Below, piece after piece: positions 28,937-37,372 of a DNA stretch of 64,000 nt. Source of the DNA: Bacteroidota bacterium (GTDB taxonomy: Bacteria; Bacteroidota; Bacteroidia; Flavobacteriales_E; Vicingaceae); the NCBI GenBank assembly GCA_013112545.1, contig JABFGJ010000003.1:124001-188000 (forward strand). The letters run 5' to 3'. Each line of letters opens with the position of its first letter. Positions within the stretch are counted from its first letter, which is position 1. A program made the position numbers and the translations under genes. The notes under the pieces are model-generated. The model did not search any database, was not told the origin of the DNA, and saw nothing but the letters and a program-made list of their open reading frames with translations.

Positions 28937-31900
28937 TTATTTATTTGATAAAAAATAATCTAATTGAAATTTACTTGTTTGATATGCTTCAAAACATAAC
29001 CAAGCGTCTTTTTCGATGCTTATAGCATCTTGGATTAACTGTAAAAATTGAAGAAAGTCAACTTCTCCTTCCCGAAAGGCAATGCTTGCTGCAAGCCTTT
29101 GTTCTTTAGCCAATTCTAAAGCTCCATTTTTATAGTATTTCCATGCCTCTTGCCATTTGATGTAGTTTTGTTTTGCTTGTTCAAAATCATTGTTAAGTTG
29201 CATCGAAACCTGATTCAAATGTTGTTCTGCAATGGAGCGTTCTATTTTTGCAGCTTGAAATTGACCTTTGGTTTTATTAAAAAATAAAGGAAGGTTTAAA
29301 CCAAATTGATACTGGTGAAAACCAGACTGACCAGCGATTTCTTGTGCGCCGTATTGTAAATTCAATTGAGGTAAATAGGCAGACTGAGCCACTTTAATGG
29401 ATTGCTCAGCTAGTCTTATTTTTTGATTTTCAATGCGAAGACTTGGATGATTCTCGAGATTATGCTCTGGGTTTAACAATATGATTTCATCGTCAATCTG
29501 AGTTGAAACCGTAAAAATTGAATCAGCAAGAAACCAAGAATTAAATTGCTCTAATGCCATTTGATAATCACTTAAAGCTACACGTTTTTCAAGACTTATC
29601 TTTTTAGCTTGATTGCTGGTTGAAAGATAAGTTAATCTTGAAATTGCTTCTGTTTCAAATTGGATATTTGCAGCGTGTTCTACTGTTTTAAAACTAGAAT
29701 CTAACTGAGTGTATAGCTCCAATAATTTCTTTTTAGAATAGAGTAAACCATAATCTTGCTTTACTTTAGCACTAAGTTGAATAGTTGAAAGTTCTAGATT
29801 CTCTTTTGCCAAGACAAGACGTTCGTTTTGCAGCTTAGATTTTGAAGAAAAACCAAACAAATCAATATTTTGCTGTTGTATTCCAATTATGGTTTTTACA
29901 CCTGAATTGTTAGAATTTAACTCTTCGCCAGCCGTATAAACTGAACTAGTACCAAAATCCCAACTAGTTTTTTTTAGGGCTTTTTGGCTATCTATTTCCA
30001 ATTGCTTGGCTTTAATCGCAGGATAATCATTTAATACCAGTTCAACAGCTTGCTCCAAGGTAATGGGAATTTCATTAGCTTTTGTTTGGGCTTTTGAATC
30101 TTGGAATTGGAAGAACATTATCCCAAAAAGCAGACTTGCAATAATTGCATTTGGATTTAAGGATAAGGAATGTTGTTTTTTTGTTTCTATCCAACGGTAT
30201 AAAATTGGAAGAACAAATAAGGTTAACAAAGTCGCTGTAATCATACCGCCAATAACAACGGTAGCTAAAGGTTGTTGTACTTCGGCACCAGCTGAGGAAG
30301 AAATGGCCATGGGTAGAAAACCCAAAATATCGGTTAAAGCTGTTAGCATAATGGGCCGAATTCTTCGTTTTGCACCCAATCGAATTCGTTCATTTATATT
30401 GTTTACGCCTTCTTCTTTTAACTCATTCCATGCACTAATAAGCACTAAACCATTTAAAACTGCAACACCAAATAATACGATAAAACCAACACCTGCCGAA
30501 ATACTAAAAGGCATGTCTCTAATCCAAAGGGAGAAAATACCTCCAATTGCTGCCAGTGGAATAGCAATGTATATCATTAAGGTTTGTTTTACTGATTTTA
30601 ATGCAAAAAAGATGAGCAGAAAGATTAAACCTAAAGCAAAAGGAACAACCAATTTTAAACGCTTGGTGGCGCGCTCTAGGTTTTCAAAAGCCCCTCCATA
30701 TCGTATGTAATAACCTGCGGGTAAAACCAATTGGGCCTCTAGTTTTTGTTGTATTTCTGAAACTAATGATTCGATATCTCTTCCTCTAACATTGATGCCA
30801 ACATAAGTTCTTCTGTTGGTATTGTCTCTGCTAATTTGCATAGGGCCTTCTTGATAGCTTATTTCTGCTAATTCTTTCAAAGGAACTTGATGTCCGTTTG
30901 GTAAATCGACAAACAGATTTTGAAGATTAGAAATGTTTTGACGGTGTTCATCTTCTAATCGAACAACTAAATCAAAGCGGCGTTCTCCTTCAAAAATAAC
31001 TCCTGCTTTTCCACCTGCAAAGGCTGTTTGAACCAATAGATTTAAATCTGAAATAGATACACCATATTGAGCCAATTTGCTCCTATTATATTTTACAGTC
31101 ATTTGAGGCAAACCAGTTGTAGCTTCTGCTTTCATGTCGCCAATTCCCCTTGTGCCAGCAATGATGTTACTTATTTCTTTGGCTTTAGCAGATAATACAT
31201 TGATGTCTTCGCCATACAGTTTTATAGCAATATCTTCACGTACACCTTCTAATAGCTCGTTAAATCGCATTTCTATGGGTTGTGTAAACTCATAATTCAC
31301 TCCAGGGATTTTGCTGAGCTCTTTTTTCATCATTTCAACCAATTCTTCTTTAGAGTTGGTGCTTGTCCATTCTGATTTTGGTGCTAATATGACTATAATG
31401 TCGGCCAAATCCATTGGCATAGGGTCAGTGGGCACTTCTGCAACTCCAATACGGCTAACAATTTTCTGGACTTCAGGAAAGTTTGCTTTTACAACTTGTT
31501 CAATTTTTGTTGTTGTTTCTATCATTTCCGATAAGGAACTTCCAGGTTGCAAAATGGCATGAAAGGCGATATCACCTTCATCTAATTGTGGAATAAATTC
31601 ACCACCTAATCGGCTAAAAGTGAAAAGCGCTAGACCGAGAAACACTAGAGCAAGGGCAACAATCCATTTCGCTTTAGATAAACTCTTAATCAGAATTTGC
31701 TCGTAAAAATTTTCAACTTTTTGTATGAATAAATCGCCCCAAGATTTTTTGTCGGATTTCGGAGCTCTTAAAAACCAAGCAGACATCATGGGAACATATG
31801 TCAAACAAAGTATCATTACACCAATCATGGCAAACATAAAAGTCAAAGCCATGGGCTGAAACATTTTGCCTTCTATGCCTTGTAGAGCAAGTATGGGTAT

Positions 31901-33280
31901 AAATACAATTAGAATAATCAATTGGCCAAAAAATGCCGAATTCATCATGCTGCTCGCAGATTTTTCAGCTACTTTATCTCGTAATTCTGGAGTGATTTTA
32001 TGCTTTTTCAGAAATTTTTCATTTAACATAAACACACTGCTTTCTACAATAATTACAGCTCCATCGATAATAATTCCAAAGTCGATTGCACCTAAACTCA
32101 TCAAGTTAGCCCACACATCAAAAACATACATAAGGATGAATGCAAATAAAAGTGAAAGTGGGATAGTGGACGCAACAATAAGACCTCCACGCCAATTTCC
32201 CAAAAGTAAAACCAGAATAAAAATGACAATTAAAGCACCCTCAATAAGGTTTTTACCAACCGTACTGGTTGTTTCAGCAATTAAGCTACTGCGTTCTAAT
32301 ACTGGTTCTATGTAAACCCCTTCAGGCAATGATTTTTGAATTTCAATCATTCGGGCTTTAACATTTTCAATTACTTCGTTTGAATTAGCTCCTTTCAGCA
32401 TCATGACAACTCCTCCTACTGATTCGCCTTCACCATCTTTAGTTACTGCTCCATATCTTACTGCAGAACCAATTTTTACACTTGCTATATCTTTTATCAG
32501 AATGGGGATGTCAAGTCCAGTTTCTATTGGCGTGTTTTCGATATCCTCAACACTACGAATAAGCCCTTCGCCACGTATAAAATTAGCTAGGTGATTTTTC
32601 TCTATATAAGCACCTCCAGTGTTTTGGTTATTGTTTTCTAAGGCTCGCATTAAGTCTGACATGTTCAAACCCATTGCTTTAAGTTTTTCAGGATTTACTG
32701 AAACTTCATATTGTTTGCTGTGGCCACCTATGGCATTTACTTCTACCACACCTTCAAGCATTGCCATTTGTCGGCTTACTATCCAGTCTTGAATTTCTCT
32801 TAAGTCCGTAGAAGAGTATTTCCCTTGATGAGCAGAATCGACGCTTAGAGCGTATTGATAAATTTCTCCTAAACCTGTACTAATGGGCCCCATAAAAGGG
32901 GTTCCAAAATTCTGTGGAATTACTTCTTTGACTTCATTTAGTTTTTCTGCTACCAATTGCCGAGGCAAATAAGTTTCTAGATCATCTTCAAAAACAATGG
33001 TAACTACAGAAAGTCCAAACCTAGAAATGGAACGAATTTCAATTACACCAGGTAAGTTAGCCATAGCTAATTCTACTGGATAAGTTACAAATTGCTCGAT
33101 GTCTTCTGTTCCCAAATTGGGAGCTTGGGTAATAACTTGCACTTGGTTGTTGGTGATGTCGGGTACAGCATCTATGGGTACTTTACTAGCACTCCATATA
33201 CCTCCAATTATTAGAGCAATGGTTAAAAGACCTACCAAAAATTTATTTTGAATAGACCATGAAATGATTCTATAAATCAT
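28937..33280 (-). CDS. czcA: CzcA heavy-metal RND permease fused to a TolC-family outer-membrane factor
   Basis: A 1447-residue protein. Residues 1 to about 1040 are a complete HME-RND permease (PIDAVPDITNNQVQV near the start, twelve membrane helices). Helix 4 carries DFGIIIDGAVIIVESSVF, the D-x5-D-G-A-x5-E pattern typical of Zn/Co/Cd/Ni pumps. About 1043-1063 is a hydrophobic segment ending SKAQ that looks like a retained signal peptide. From about 1070 to 1447 the sequence is TolC-like (EQAVELVLNDYPAIKAKQLE, NLQYGAQ, LNLPLFFNKTKGQFQAAK). Such CzcA-C fusions are known in Bacteroidota. If the segment is cut by signal peptidase, the two halves would separate after translation. It follows the DUF6660 gene. 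Confidence 0.92.
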   Translation of the reverse strand: MIYRIISWSIQNKFLVGLLTIALIIGGIWSASKVPIDAVPDITNNQVQVITQAPNLGTEDIEQFVTYPVELAMANLPGVIEIRSISRFGLSVVTIVFEDDLETYLPRQLVAEKLNEVKEVIPQNFGTPFMGPISTGLGEIYQYALSVDSAHQGKYSSTDLREIQDWIVSRQMAMLEGVVEVNAIGGHSKQYEVSVNPEKLKAMGLNMSDLMRALENNNQNTGGAYIEKNHLANFIRGEGLIRSVEDIENTPIETGLDIPILIKDIASVKIGSAVRYGAVTKDGEGESVGGVVMMLKGANSNEVIENVKARMIEIQKSLPEGVYIEPVLERSSLIAETTSTVGKNLIEGALIVIFILVLLLGNWRGGLIVASTIPLSLLFAFILMYVFDVWANLMSLGAIDFGIIIDGAVIIVESSVFMLNEKFLKKHKITPELRDKVAEKSASSMMNSAFFGQLIILIVFIPILALQGIEGKMFQPMALTFMFAMIGVMILCLTYVPMMSAWFLRAPKSDKKSWGDLFIQKVENFYEQILIKSLSKAKWIVALALVFLGLALFTFSRLGGEFIPQLDEGDIAFHAILQPGSSLSEMIETTTKIEQVVKANFPEVQKIVSRIGVAEVPTDPMPMDLADIIVILAPKSEWTSTNSKEELVEMMKKELSKIPGVNYEFTQPIEMRFNELLEGVREDIAIKLYGEDINVLSAKAKEISNIIAGTRGIGDMKAEATTGLPQMTVKYNRSKLAQYGVSISDLNLLVQTAFAGGKAGVIFEGERRFDLVVRLEDEHRQNISNLQNLFVDLPNGHQVPLKELAEISYQEGPMQISRDNTNRRTYVGINVRGRDIESLVSEIQQKLEAQLVLPAGYYIRYGGAFENLERATKRLKLVVPFALGLIFLLIFFALKSVKQTLMIYIAIPLAAIGGIFSLWIRDMPFSISAGVGFIVLFGVAVLNGLVLISAWNELKEEGVNNINERIRLGAKRRIRPIMLTALTDILGFLPMAISSSAGAEVQQPLATVVIGGMITATLLTLFVLPILYRWIETKKQHSLSLNPNAIIASLLFGIMFFQFQDSKAQTKANEIPITLEQAVELVLNDYPAIKAKQLEIDSQKALKKTSWDFGTSSVYTAGEELNSNNSGVKTIIGIQQQNIDLFGFSSKSKLQNERLVLAKENLELSTIQLSAKVKQDYGLLYSKKKLLELYTQLDSSFKTVEHAANIQFETEAISRLTYLSTSNQAKKISLEKRVALSDYQMALEQFNSWFLADSIFTVSTQIDDEIILLNPEHNLENHPSLRIENQKIRLAEQSIKVAQSAYLPQLNLQYGAQEIAGQSGFHQYQFGLNLPLFFNKTKGQFQAAKIERSIAEQHLNQVSMQLNNDFEQAKQNYIKWQEAWKYYKNGALELAKEQRLAASIAFREGEVDFLQFLQLIQDAISIEKDAWLCFEAYQTSKFQLDYFLSNK

Positions 33281-33973: not shown

Positions 33974-36900
33974 ATGAGAATATTAGGGTTATTTTTTGCC
34001 TTATGCCTTATGGCAAAAACCGCCTATTCCCAAAATATTGGAGACACCATTGTGGTTCAAGGCTTTGAATACAAAAGCTCTACTCGAGATACGATAATTT
34101 CTTTTCCTACAAACCCAGCTATACGCTTTGAAAAGGTAATTATGAGATATGCCATGCGTTGCAAAAATGCACTGGTTTCCACTGGTTCTAATCGCAATTT
34201 AGGCTGTGGAGAATGGGATTATTCTTGTAACACTTATGTTGAAAATCCATCTATGGCAGATTCCATCATCAGTACTGTTAATCGATATCAAATAACACCA
34301 AATACCAACACGACTGGAATGTATAGTACGGTACCAACTTGGACAGCTCAACAAACTATACAAAATAGAGTGCTTTTAAATTCAATAATTACTGAAGATA
34401 CTGCATCCATTGGATTGTCGGCTAACACAGATACATCGTTTATAAATAGTAGAGCAGGAGGTGGAAAATCTTATGTTTTATATACAGCTGCCGAGTTATT
34501 AGCTGCTGGTTTAACCGCTGGCAATATCGATGCAATAAGCCTAAATTCTAACGCTTCAAATGTGCTTATTAAAAAATTTAGATTGAGTTTAAAACAAACT
34601 ACTTTAACAAACTTAGATCAAATAGATACCTCAATCTTTAATCATTTTCAAGAAGTTTATTTTCATGATTATAACTTCACAAATGGTTGGAATAGAATTC
34701 AATTTCATAATTCGTTTAATTGGGATGGGAGCTCTAATTTGATAATTGAAACAAATTACAAGGGCAATTCTAATAATAACCCATTAATATTGAGTAGCAC
34801 AGCTGGAATAAATACCATTACTTCATCTAATGATTTTGCATTGAATTTATTTCCAAACAACTATGTAGAAGCAAATAGTTATCAAGGAATTTCTGGAAAT
34901 AATGACAGAACTGTAACTGCGTGGATTAAAACTACTGGTTCAGGTGAAATAACTACTTGGGGAACAAATAACTCCACAGAAAAACAATCTTTTTGGGTTA
35001 ACGGCTCTGGAAAATTACGCTTAGAAATTAACGGTGCTTATGCCGTTGGAACTAAAGTAGTAAACGATGGTCAATGGCATCATGTAGGCTTTACTTTTTC
35101 TGGTTATAATATGTATAATGTCAAGTTTTATGTGGATGGTAAATGGGATTATAGCAGTTCGGTAAGCACCAAAGCAATGAACACACAACTGTCTTATCCT
35201 TTTCAAATTTCAAAAGGATTTCACAACCGTTATTTTAGTGGGCAAATGGACGATATTCGAGTATGGGACACTGCATTAAGCCAAACTGATATTAAACATT
35301 GGATGCATAGAAAACTATTTGCTAGCCATATAAATACAAGTAATGTACATCCTCAAATCTCACATTTAGATTTAGCTTACGAAATAAAAAATACCAATGC
35401 ATTAATTGAAGATATATCGACAAATTCAAATGACGCCTTATTTAATGTTGCGCCTAGTTTTAAATCATTTGAAGGAGTAGAGATATTCAAAAATTTTGAG
35501 TCAAATACTATGCGGCCTAATATCCGATTTATGCAAGGAACATATAATTTAACCATTAGCGCAGATACTTTATTGGACACAACTATTAATAGCCCATATA
35601 CTGTAATTGAGAATACGATTTACCCAAGACCTGGAACAACTAGTTCGGATAGTATTGGCAGCACATTGAGTAATTATTATGATCAGTACAATATCATTTT
35701 AGATGTAAACGGAAATCAGATTAGCCAAGCACTTTCTTCATCAGTTGTGAGCCTTCAAAACTTAGTTTTAGATTATTATCAAAGAAATCCTTCTAATGTA
35801 GAGATTATGTCATTTGTAACGCCTTATGGTATTGGTTTAGATTTAGGTGTTGATGGTAAAGCATGGTATTTTGATGTGACGGATTACTTGCCAGTTTTAC
35901 AAGGCAATCGTAGGTTGAGTATGACTAGAGGTGGGCAATGGCAAGAAGAGATGGACATTCAGTTTTTATTTATAGTAGGAACACCTCCTGCCGATGTAAA
36001 ACGTTTTCAGCAAATCTGGAAAGTTGATTCTAGAAACTATACTGACATTATAGCTAATAAATATTTTGCCCCAAGAAGTGTTCCTATAGATACTTCTGCG
36101 AGAATATTCAAAGTAAGATCGGCAATTACTGGACATGGTCAGCAAGGAGAGTTTATAGCAAGAAACCATTATATTGATATTAATAATGGCGCAAAAATTT
36201 ACAATAGAGCTGTTTGGAAAACTTGCTCAAAAAATCCTGTTTATCCACAAGGAGGAACTTGGATTTATGACCGAGCAGGTTGGTGTCCTGGAATGGCAAC
36301 AGATGTGGCAGAATACGATATTAGCAATTTTGTAAGTGGAGACAGTGTATTAATAGAATATGGAGTGTCAACTGCGAGTGGAGATTCGAGATATATTGTC
36401 AGCAATCAGCTGGTCAGTTATGGCAATCCAAATTTTACAAGCGATGCTAGAATAATAGAGATTAGTCGCCCAACAAATGATACGGAATTTGGCAGAAGAA
36501 ATCCTTCTTGCTATAACCCAATTGTGAGAATCCAGAATACTGGTTCTAATTTAATGACAGCTGCGAGCATTCAGATACAAGTTAATGGTGGTGCTCCAAT
36601 TACACACAATTGGACTGGTAGTTTAAATTTTATGGAATCCACTACAGTTTTAATTCCTGTTAGTCAGGCATTTTGGTCAACAGCTAGCGTAGGTTTAAAT
36701 ACTTTTAAAGCAACTATAATGAGTGTAAATGGTGGAGCAGACCAATATGCTTTTAACAATAGCATGCAAAGCAATTTTGAGATGCCAGATGATTTACCAT
36801 CCAGATTTTCAATTATCTTTAAAACTAATTTAGTGAATGAAACAAGTTATACTTTAAAAGATGAAAGTGGTACTTTACTTTTTCAGAAAAGTAACTTAGC

Positions 36901-37372
36901 TACCAATCACACTTATGTAGATACCTTTTTATATGCACCAGGTTGCTACCGATTAGATGTACTTGATGCAGGAAATGATGGCTTATCATTTTTTGCAAAT
37001 AATTCTGGAACTGGATACTTTAGAATTGCTGATGCAAATGGAACTATTCTCAAAAACTTCAATCCAGATTTTGGCGCAGGAATAGAGTACTATTTTACAG
37101 TAGGTAATACAACTGGCTTGAATGAACTTCATGAAGATATTGATTTAACCTTGTATCCTAATCCAACAAACAATGTAATATACTTAAAGTCAAGCCTTAA
37201 TATTACTTCATGGGAATTAACAAATAACCTTGGGCAAGCAGTTTTAAATGGTATCTTTGCAAATTCAAAAAACATCCATTCAATAGATGTTAACTCCGTT
37301 GAAACTGGAGTGTATTACCTAAAAATAGTTACAGAGAATAAAACAATAATTAAAAAAATCATAAAACAATAA
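33974..37372 (+). CDS. Secreted PNGase F-related protein with LamG insertion and T9SS type A sorting domain
   Basis: An 1132-residue secreted protein with a signal peptide at about 1-19 (ending AYSQ). Residues 78-82 read CGEWD, matching the CDEWD of PNGase F whose Asp is the main catalytic residue (D82 here). An insertion follows with a LamG/concanavalin-like domain at about 292-440. The PNGase F N-domain resumes at TPYGIG (about 616) and runs to FLFIVGTPP. The C-domain has ITGHGQQGEF (E726, equivalent to PNGase F E206) and the very well conserved DRAGWCPGMA (766-775). The last 75 residues form a type A sorting domain (LYPNPTNN, ending TIIKKIIKQ). It may deglycosylate N-glycoproteins or glycoamidated peptides, but PNGase F E118 appears replaced by Gly. 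It leads an operon with the SPFH gene. Confidence 0.82.
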   Translation: MRILGLFFALCLMAKTAYSQNIGDTIVVQGFEYKSSTRDTIISFPTNPAIRFEKVIMRYAMRCKNALVSTGSNRNLGCGEWDYSCNTYVENPSMADSIISTVNRYQITPNTNTTGMYSTVPTWTAQQTIQNRVLLNSIITEDTASIGLSANTDTSFINSRAGGGKSYVLYTAAELLAAGLTAGNIDAISLNSNASNVLIKKFRLSLKQTTLTNLDQIDTSIFNHFQEVYFHDYNFTNGWNRIQFHNSFNWDGSSNLIIETNYKGNSNNNPLILSSTAGINTITSSNDFALNLFPNNYVEANSYQGISGNNDRTVTAWIKTTGSGEITTWGTNNSTEKQSFWVNGSGKLRLEINGAYAVGTKVVNDGQWHHVGFTFSGYNMYNVKFYVDGKWDYSSSVSTKAMNTQLSYPFQISKGFHNRYFSGQMDDIRVWDTALSQTDIKHWMHRKLFASHINTSNVHPQISHLDLAYEIKNTNALIEDISTNSNDALFNVAPSFKSFEGVEIFKNFESNTMRPNIRFMQGTYNLTISADTLLDTTINSPYTVIENTIYPRPGTTSSDSIGSTLSNYYDQYNIILDVNGNQISQALSSSVVSLQNLVLDYYQRNPSNVEIMSFVTPYGIGLDLGVDGKAWYFDVTDYLPVLQGNRRLSMTRGGQWQEEMDIQFLFIVGTPPADVKRFQQIWKVDSRNYTDIIANKYFAPRSVPIDTSARIFKVRSAITGHGQQGEFIARNHYIDINNGAKIYNRAVWKTCSKNPVYPQGGTWIYDRAGWCPGMATDVAEYDISNFVSGDSVLIEYGVSTASGDSRYIVSNQLVSYGNPNFTSDARIIEISRPTNDTEFGRRNPSCYNPIVRIQNTGSNLMTAASIQIQVNGGAPITHNWTGSLNFMESTTVLIPVSQAFWSTASVGLNTFKATIMSVNGGADQYAFNNSMQSNFEMPDDLPSRFSIIFKTNLVNETSYTLKDESGTLLFQKSNLATNHTYVDTFLYAPGCYRLDVLDAGNDGLSFFANNSGTGYFRIADANGTILKNFNPDFGAGIEYYFTVGNTTGLNELHEDIDLTLYPNPTNNVIYLKSSLNITSWELTNNLGQAVLNGIFANSKNIHSIDVNSVETGVYYLKIVTENKTIIKKIIKQ

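What the first reader, a model, noticed from the sequence alone, without database searches (positions are those of the whole stretch)
33974..37372. PNGase F-like enzyme with its N-terminal domain split by a LamG-containing insertion
CGEWD (D82) and TPYGIG (about 616) belong to the same small PNGase F N-domain, yet about 530 residues including a LamG domain lie between them. D82 and E726 match PNGase F D60 and E206, and DRAGWCPGMA is identical in both. The E118 position reads Gly in a GGQW stretch. This may be a glycan-targeted amidase with altered specificity, or a binding protein with lost activity.
Basis: partly seen in the sequence, partly recalled or inferred. Interest (0 to 1): 0.62.

Follow-up and report, generated by a model that had tools for sequence, protein, structure and literature searches.

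The report
PNGase F-like enzyme with nested LamG
This gene encodes a secreted bacterial enzyme of the family that cuts sugar chains off proteins, with a long arm carrying a LamG-type domain built into one loop of its catalytic fold; its catalytic residues are kept in every relative examined, so it is most likely a working, widespread but uncharacterised enzyme and not a dead binding protein.

Summary
One 1132-aa ORF carries a PNGase F fold whose N-domain is interrupted after CGEWD (residues 78-82) and resumes just before TPYGIG (616). A 57-homologue profile matches PNGase F in two stretches (PNGF 6-74 and 77-303). In the AlphaFold2 model the two halves superpose on PNGase F residues 4-306 (Z 25.0, 2.9 A). 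The insert is a doll within a doll: the PNGase hairpin grew into a ~132-residue arm, which relatives have alone, and ~390 residues (beta-sandwich plus LamG) sit inside that arm. The long form is widespread in Bacteroidota with a near-constant insert (521-546 aa). One relative deep inside the clade has no insert yet keeps the active site. D82, E726, H721, R767 and W770 are invariant in all 76 homologues aligned, which argues against lost activity. Gly at the E118 position has a published meaning: in PNGase F-II and Bacteroides group-2 PNGases it makes room for core alpha-1,3-fucose. So this is probably an active T9SS-secreted PNGase, plausibly open to plant, algal or invertebrate-type N-glycans, with a LamG module for adhesion or targeting. 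It is a new architectural variant of a known enzyme family. Activity, specificity and LamG ligand are untested.

The parts
33974..37372 (+). whole gene, 1132 aa, PNGase F-like protein with nested insertion
33974..34030 (+). predicted signal peptide, residues 1-19 (by inspection)
   Evidence: sequence; hydrophobic N-terminus, no tool run
34031..34219 (+). PNGase F N-domain, first part (residues 20-82), ends with CGEWD; D82 = D60 at 34217-34219
34220..34354 (+). ascending part of the beta arm (residues about 83-127), homologous to arm positions 1-45 of the 132-residue-arm relatives
   Evidence: hhalign E 1e-7; long strands in model
34355..35533 (+). accessory cassette inside the arm (residues about 128-520): beta-sandwich plus LamG
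34856..35296 (+). LamG / pentraxin-like domain, residues 295-441 (the structural match extends it to about residue 506)
   Evidence: Z about 17-19 to pentraxins and PAPP-A
35534..35791 (+). descending part of the beta arm (residues about 521-606)
   Evidence: hhalign E 1.3e-16
35792..36034 (+). PNGase F N-domain, second part (residues 607-687): TPYGIG; Gly654 (35933-35935) at the E118 position; Q657-E658 (35942-35947), invariant in long forms
36035..36433 (+). PNGase F C-domain (residues 688-820): H721 (36134-36136), E726 = E206 (36149-36151), R767 (36272-36274), W770 (36281-36283)
36434..37138 (+). predicted C-terminal beta domains (residues 821-1055), shared with insert-free relatives
   Evidence: alignments reach residue about 1130 in short forms
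37151..37369 (+). T9SS type A sorting domain (residues 1060-1132)

Best explanation
A T9SS-secreted, catalytically competent PNGase of the PNGase F superfamily. Shown by sequence and predicted model: the two halves of the N-domain and the C-domain form one PNGase F double jelly roll, interrupted in one hairpin by a beta arm that itself carries a sandwich + LamG cassette. Inferred: D82 and E726, with H721, Y83, W81, R767 and W770, bind the core GlcNAc of an N-glycan and hydrolyse the glycan-Asn amide as in PNGase F and Ngly2. Gly654 in place of E118 leaves space at core C3, so core alpha-1,3-fucosylated (plant, algal, invertebrate) glycans may be accepted; Q657-E658, invariant in the long forms, may replace part of E118's contact. 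The arm lifts the LamG away from the core, where it would bind a glycan, matrix or cell surface and hold the enzyme near its substrate. The LamG is not needed for the fold.
For: Profile match to PNGase F in two collinear stretches. AF2 model pLDDT 87.7; PNGase F residues 4-306 superpose with model residues 4-801, 271 aligned, Z 25.0, 2.9 A; Ngly2 Z 23.8, PNGF-II Z 22.4. 271 aligned exceeds the 232 residues of PNGF 75-306, so at least 39 residues of the D60 half are aligned in the same superposition. D60/H191/E206/R248/W251 equivalents invariant in 76 of 76 homologues of four insert classes. Ngly2 needs D421 and E555 (PMC12753239). Six diverse PNGase F-superfamily enzymes are active with the aromatic-D-aromatic/positive and His+Glu pattern found here, and the E118 side is variable (PMC12381499). 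Gly at E118 makes the alpha-1,3-fucose pocket in PNGF-II (PMC9522356). Natural deletion: L083 (insert 21 aa, inside the long clade) keeps the active site and its model matches PNGase F at Z 24.5-24.7. Long-form genomes carry GH92 alpha-mannosidases more often: 29/44 vs 29/105, odds ratio 5.1; 7.3 outside the window's family (kinship not corrected further).
Against: No activity data for any member of this clade that I could identify. The window's own genome (100% complete) has no GH92, GH18, GH125 or SusD and no GH20 above cut-off, so the released glycan has no obvious further use there; the gene stands among metal efflux, SPFH and OmpA genes. The aromatic at the W120 position is not conserved. 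The model's pTM is 0.57, so LamG placement is unknown, and no coordinates were available to measure D82-E726 directly.
Confidence: 0.75

Rival explanations
1. An amidase of the same fold that acts on a different glycoconjugate (for example bacterial or algal glycoprotein, or small glycosylasparagines) rather than eukaryotic N-glycans; the missing E118 and the variable W120 position reflect loss of chitobiose recognition.
For: E118 Gly in 39/40 long forms, W120 position Q/W/N/F; own genome lacks N-glycan breakdown genes; orphan gene.
Against: The residues that hold the first GlcNAc (W81, D82, Y83, H721, E726) are those of active PNGases (PMC12381499); E118 is equally Gly in PNGase F-II, which cleaves N-glycans (PMC9522356); family-wide association with GH92.
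Confidence: 0.15
2. A catalytically dead, glycan-binding protein: the PNGase fold is a lectin-like scaffold and LamG the second binding module.
For: E118 lost; large accessory cassette; many LamG proteins are adhesins (general knowledge).
Against: D60, E206, H191, R248, W251 equivalents invariant in 76/76 homologues including all 40 long forms, which would not be expected without catalysis; Ngly2 is active without a Glu in the aligned E118 stretch (PMC12753239).
Confidence: 0.07
3. Annotation or assembly artefact: two genes, or a LamG joined into one genome by misassembly.
For: None found.
Against: Same architecture with a 521-546 aa insert in 40 genes aligned here and in 73 loci of a second collection that partly overlaps them; open reading frame without stops.
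Confidence: 0.01

Closest known systems
PNGase F (Elizabethkingia meningoseptica; 1PGS, 1PNF)
   Same: Whole double jelly-roll fold (Z 25.0), D60/E206/R248/W251 and DRAGWCPGMA.
   Different: No insert in the N-domain hairpin; Trp191 instead of His721; Arg61 instead of Tyr83; Glu118 instead of Gly654; no T9SS tail or LamG in the aligned PDB chain.
Zebrafish Ngly2, acid PNGase (9LWG; PMC12753239)
   Same: PNGase F fold (Z 23.8), essential Asp421/Glu555, His at the W191 position (H546), no Glu in the E118 stretch.
   Different: Uninterrupted PNGase domain at the C-terminus, preceded by thioredoxin-like and PA domains; His422 where the window has Tyr83.
PNGase F-II and Bacteroides group-2 PNGases (4R4X, 7ZGN; PMC9522356)
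   Same: PNGase F fold (Z about 22), Gly at the E118 position.
   Different: N-terminal bowl-like domain instead of an inserted arm; their compensating Glu lies elsewhere in sequence (E418/E419 in the paper).
PNGaseL and PNGaseDo (Flavobacterium akiainvivens, Draconibacterium orientale; PMC12381499)
   Same: Bacteroidota, T9SS-secreted, beta accessory modules, aromatic-D-aromatic/positive and His+Glu pattern; most genes of that study are orphans.
   Different: The paper describes accessory modules N- or C-terminal to the catalytic module and mentions no LamG or inserted module; their sequences were not held, so their exact relation to this clade is not tested.
Tandem LamG + PNGase proteins of related genomes (L094, L106)
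   Same: LamG and PNGase F domain in one protein, with a T9SS-type tail (above cut-off in L106, just below in L094).
   Different: LamG lies N-terminal in tandem and the PNGase hairpin is short (20 aa); a separate combination in a different part of the tree.

Membership tests
PNGase F superfamily (PF09112/PF09113, IPR015197) | N-glycanase_C domain above the curated cut-off | tested here: met
   50.4 bits vs 25 cut-off; 41/41 long forms match PF09113 at E <= 0.01
PNGase F superfamily (PF09112/PF09113, IPR015197) | N-terminal jelly roll with the D60 motif | tested here: met
   Pfam PF09112 itself is not hit, as expected for a split domain, but the profile matches PNGF 6-74 plus 77-303 and the model covers 4-306
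PNGase F superfamily (PF09112/PF09113, IPR015197) | Catalytic Asp60 and Glu206 | tested here: met
   D82 and E726; invariant in 76/76 homologues
PNGase F superfamily (PF09112/PF09113, IPR015197) | Double eight-stranded jelly-roll fold | tested here: met
   predicted model, Z 25.0 to 1PGS
PNGase F superfamily (PF09112/PF09113, IPR015197) | Release of N-glycans from glycopeptides (EC 3.5.1.52) | not testable with these tools
   needs an enzyme assay
PNGase F type I specificity group | Glu (or Asp) at position 118 that blocks core alpha-1,3-fucose | tested here: not met
   Gly654 in the window; Gly in 39/40 long forms
PNGase F type II (core-fucose) group | Gly at the E118 position | tested here: met
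   PMC9522356
PNGase F type II (core-fucose) group | N-terminal bowl-like domain | tested here: not met
   mature protein starts directly with the PNGase N-domain
T9SS cargo, type A sorting domain | C-terminal sorting domain above cut-off | tested here: met
   PF18962 44.1 vs 27 bits; TIGR04183 50 vs 23 bits

The most novel reading that the evidence does not exclude
A previously undescribed PNGase subfamily in which a nested beta arm plus LamG cassette acts in cis to select or hold the glycoprotein substrate (for example algal or invertebrate matrix), giving a substrate-guided glycoamidase open to core alpha-1,3-fucose; the arm hairpin would be a hot spot where Bacteroidota gained and lost modules without harming catalysis.
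Probability: 0.35. Interest if true: 0.55.

Novelty: new variant of a known kind. Interest (0 to 1): 0.42.

Why it matters
PNGases are the standard tools for N-glycan release, and enzymes that accept core alpha-1,3-fucose are sought after. This clade is large, widespread in Bacteroidota and, as far as the papers held here show, uncharacterised; the Pfam model of the catalytic N-domain does not detect it because the domain is split. The set of insert sizes (20-26, 53, about 132, about 530 aa) at one hairpin, including a natural loss, gives a ready comparison of what an accessory module does for such an enzyme.

Tried and rejected
Dead binding protein: rejected as main explanation because all catalytic positions are invariant. 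Misassembly: rejected by many homologous loci. Conserved operon partner: none found; the window's neighbours (cation efflux, RND pump, SPFH, OmpA) gave only a handful of weak scattered hits near 80 relatives. T9SS-secreted GH92 partner: ten GH92 loci were read and their C-termini, by eye, do not look like T9SS tails, so that idea was dropped. Literature searches for a LamG-inserted PNGase found nothing relevant; the Tetrahymena LamG paper uses PNGase F only as a reagent. No atomic coordinates are returned by the structure tool, so the D82-E726 distance and the position of LamG relative to the active site could not be measured. Foldseek alone aligned only part of PNGase F (241 columns); the second aligner was needed for the split half.

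Full report
Observation. The ORF at 33974-37372 (+) encodes 1132 residues. Pfam finds Laminin_G_3 at 295-441, N-glycanase_C at 688-805 and a T9SS tail at 1060-1130. A direct comparison with PNGase F chains aligns D82 with D60, E726 with E206, and DRAGWCPGMA letter for letter.

The split. An alignment of 57 homologues from whole genomes (A2) searched against PDB sequences matches PNGase F twice: profile 12-79 to PNGF 6-74 (i-E 8.4e-5) and 582-794 to PNGF 77-303 (9.7e-39). Residues three apart in PNGase F become about 500 apart here. AlphaFold2 on A2 gave pLDDT 87.7, pTM 0.57. VIA-align put PNGase F 4-306 on model residues 4-801 with 271 residues, 2.9 A, Z 25.0, then Ngly2 (Z 23.8), PNGF-II (22.4) and Bacteroides PNGases. 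Because PNGF 75-306 has only 232 residues, at least 39 of the 271 lie in the D60 half, so both halves are placed together in one superposition. D82 and E726 should therefore sit as D60 and E206 do; the distance itself was not measured.

What the insert is. Between CxEWD and TPY, homologues have 20-26, 53, about 113-132 or 521-546 residues. The 132-residue arm of the third class aligns to both ends of the long insert: its positions 1-46 to the first 46 and 39-132 to the last about 95 (hhalign E 1e-7 and 1.3e-16). So the arm was itself interrupted by about 390 residues holding a beta-sandwich and LamG. LamG is found by Pfam in 38 of 41 long members and N-glycanase_C in all 41. The model's LamG resembles pentraxins and the PAPP-A LamG (Z about 17-19).

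History. On a tree of the core without the insert, all 40 long forms, the two 53-residue forms and L083 (21 residues) form one clade (SH-aLRT 99), marked by a Q-E pair behind the shortened E118 loop. L083 lies several supported branches inside the long forms, so it most simply lost the insert. It keeps the active site, and its own model (pLDDT 87.2) matches PNGase F over 282-287 residues at Z 24.5-24.7. The insert is thus dispensable for the fold and, by conservation, probably for the chemistry. The quick tree has long branches outside the clade, so the order of the arm's gains and losses there is unsure. LamG also occurs in tandem, N-terminal to an uninterrupted PNGase domain, in L094 and L106, placed elsewhere in the tree.

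Active site. Equivalents of W59, D60, His (PNGF W191), E206, R248 and W251 are invariant in 76/76 homologues. A 2025 study of six PNGase F-superfamily enzymes, all active on some substrate, describes an aromatic-D-aromatic/positive motif and a His+Glu pair as the conserved core, PNGase F being the exception with Trp for His; [quoted passage not shown]), and that is where E118 acts (PMC9522356; established structure work on PNGase F). Ngly2 loses all activity when D421 or E555 is mutated (PMC12753239). In PNGF-II and Bacteroides group-2 enzymes E118 is Gly, making room for core alpha-1,3-fucose, with another Glu taking over its role (PMC9522356). The window protein has this Gly, and a Q657-E658 pair invariant in the long forms in a shortened loop that may serve as substitute; this last step is inference.

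Setting. A scan of species genomes found at least 569 relatives; of the best 80, 78 are assigned to Bacteroidota, one to Fidelibacterota (a MAG) and one is unassigned. Neighbouring genes are not conserved. In 149 genomes, long-form carriers have GH92 more often (29/44 vs 29/105, p 1.8e-5; outside the window's family 19/24 vs 27/79, p 1.3e-4); the genomes are related, so p-values are optimistic. The window's own genome lacks GH92, GH18, GH125 and SusD and has no GH20 over cut-off, but has S8 peptidases. There, deglycosylation may serve proteolysis of glycoproteins rather than sugar use; this is speculation.

Verdict. It is a widespread architectural variant of a known enzyme family. Fold and split: about 0.95. 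Catalytic competence on N-glycans: about 0.75. Tolerance of core alpha-1,3-fucose: about 0.5. LamG as a targeting module: likely by analogy, untested.

Noticed in passing
window 28937-33280 (-): A single 1447-aa ORF fuses an RND heavy-metal pump (ACR_tran 5-1031) with an outer membrane efflux protein (OEP, best stretch 1273-1424), next to a CusB-like adaptor and a cation efflux protein.
   Followed up: partly
L094 and L106 (genomes G128, G011): Proteins in related genomes carry LamG N-terminal to an uninterrupted PNGase F domain: a second, separate LamG-PNGase combination.
   Followed up: partly
L095, L098-L102: Other PNGase F-like proteins in related genomes with a short hairpin, W-D-R motif, Asp at the E118 position and long N-terminal regions.
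   Followed up: no
G000 (the window's genome): No GH92, GH18, GH125 or SusD hits in a 100% complete genome that encodes this PNGase-like protein.
   Followed up: partly
L191-L200: GH92 proteins of ten relatives are about 975-1025 aa with a conserved C-terminal extension ending in a '...DEI.I' strand, larger than the roughly 750-aa GH92s also seen.
   Followed up: no
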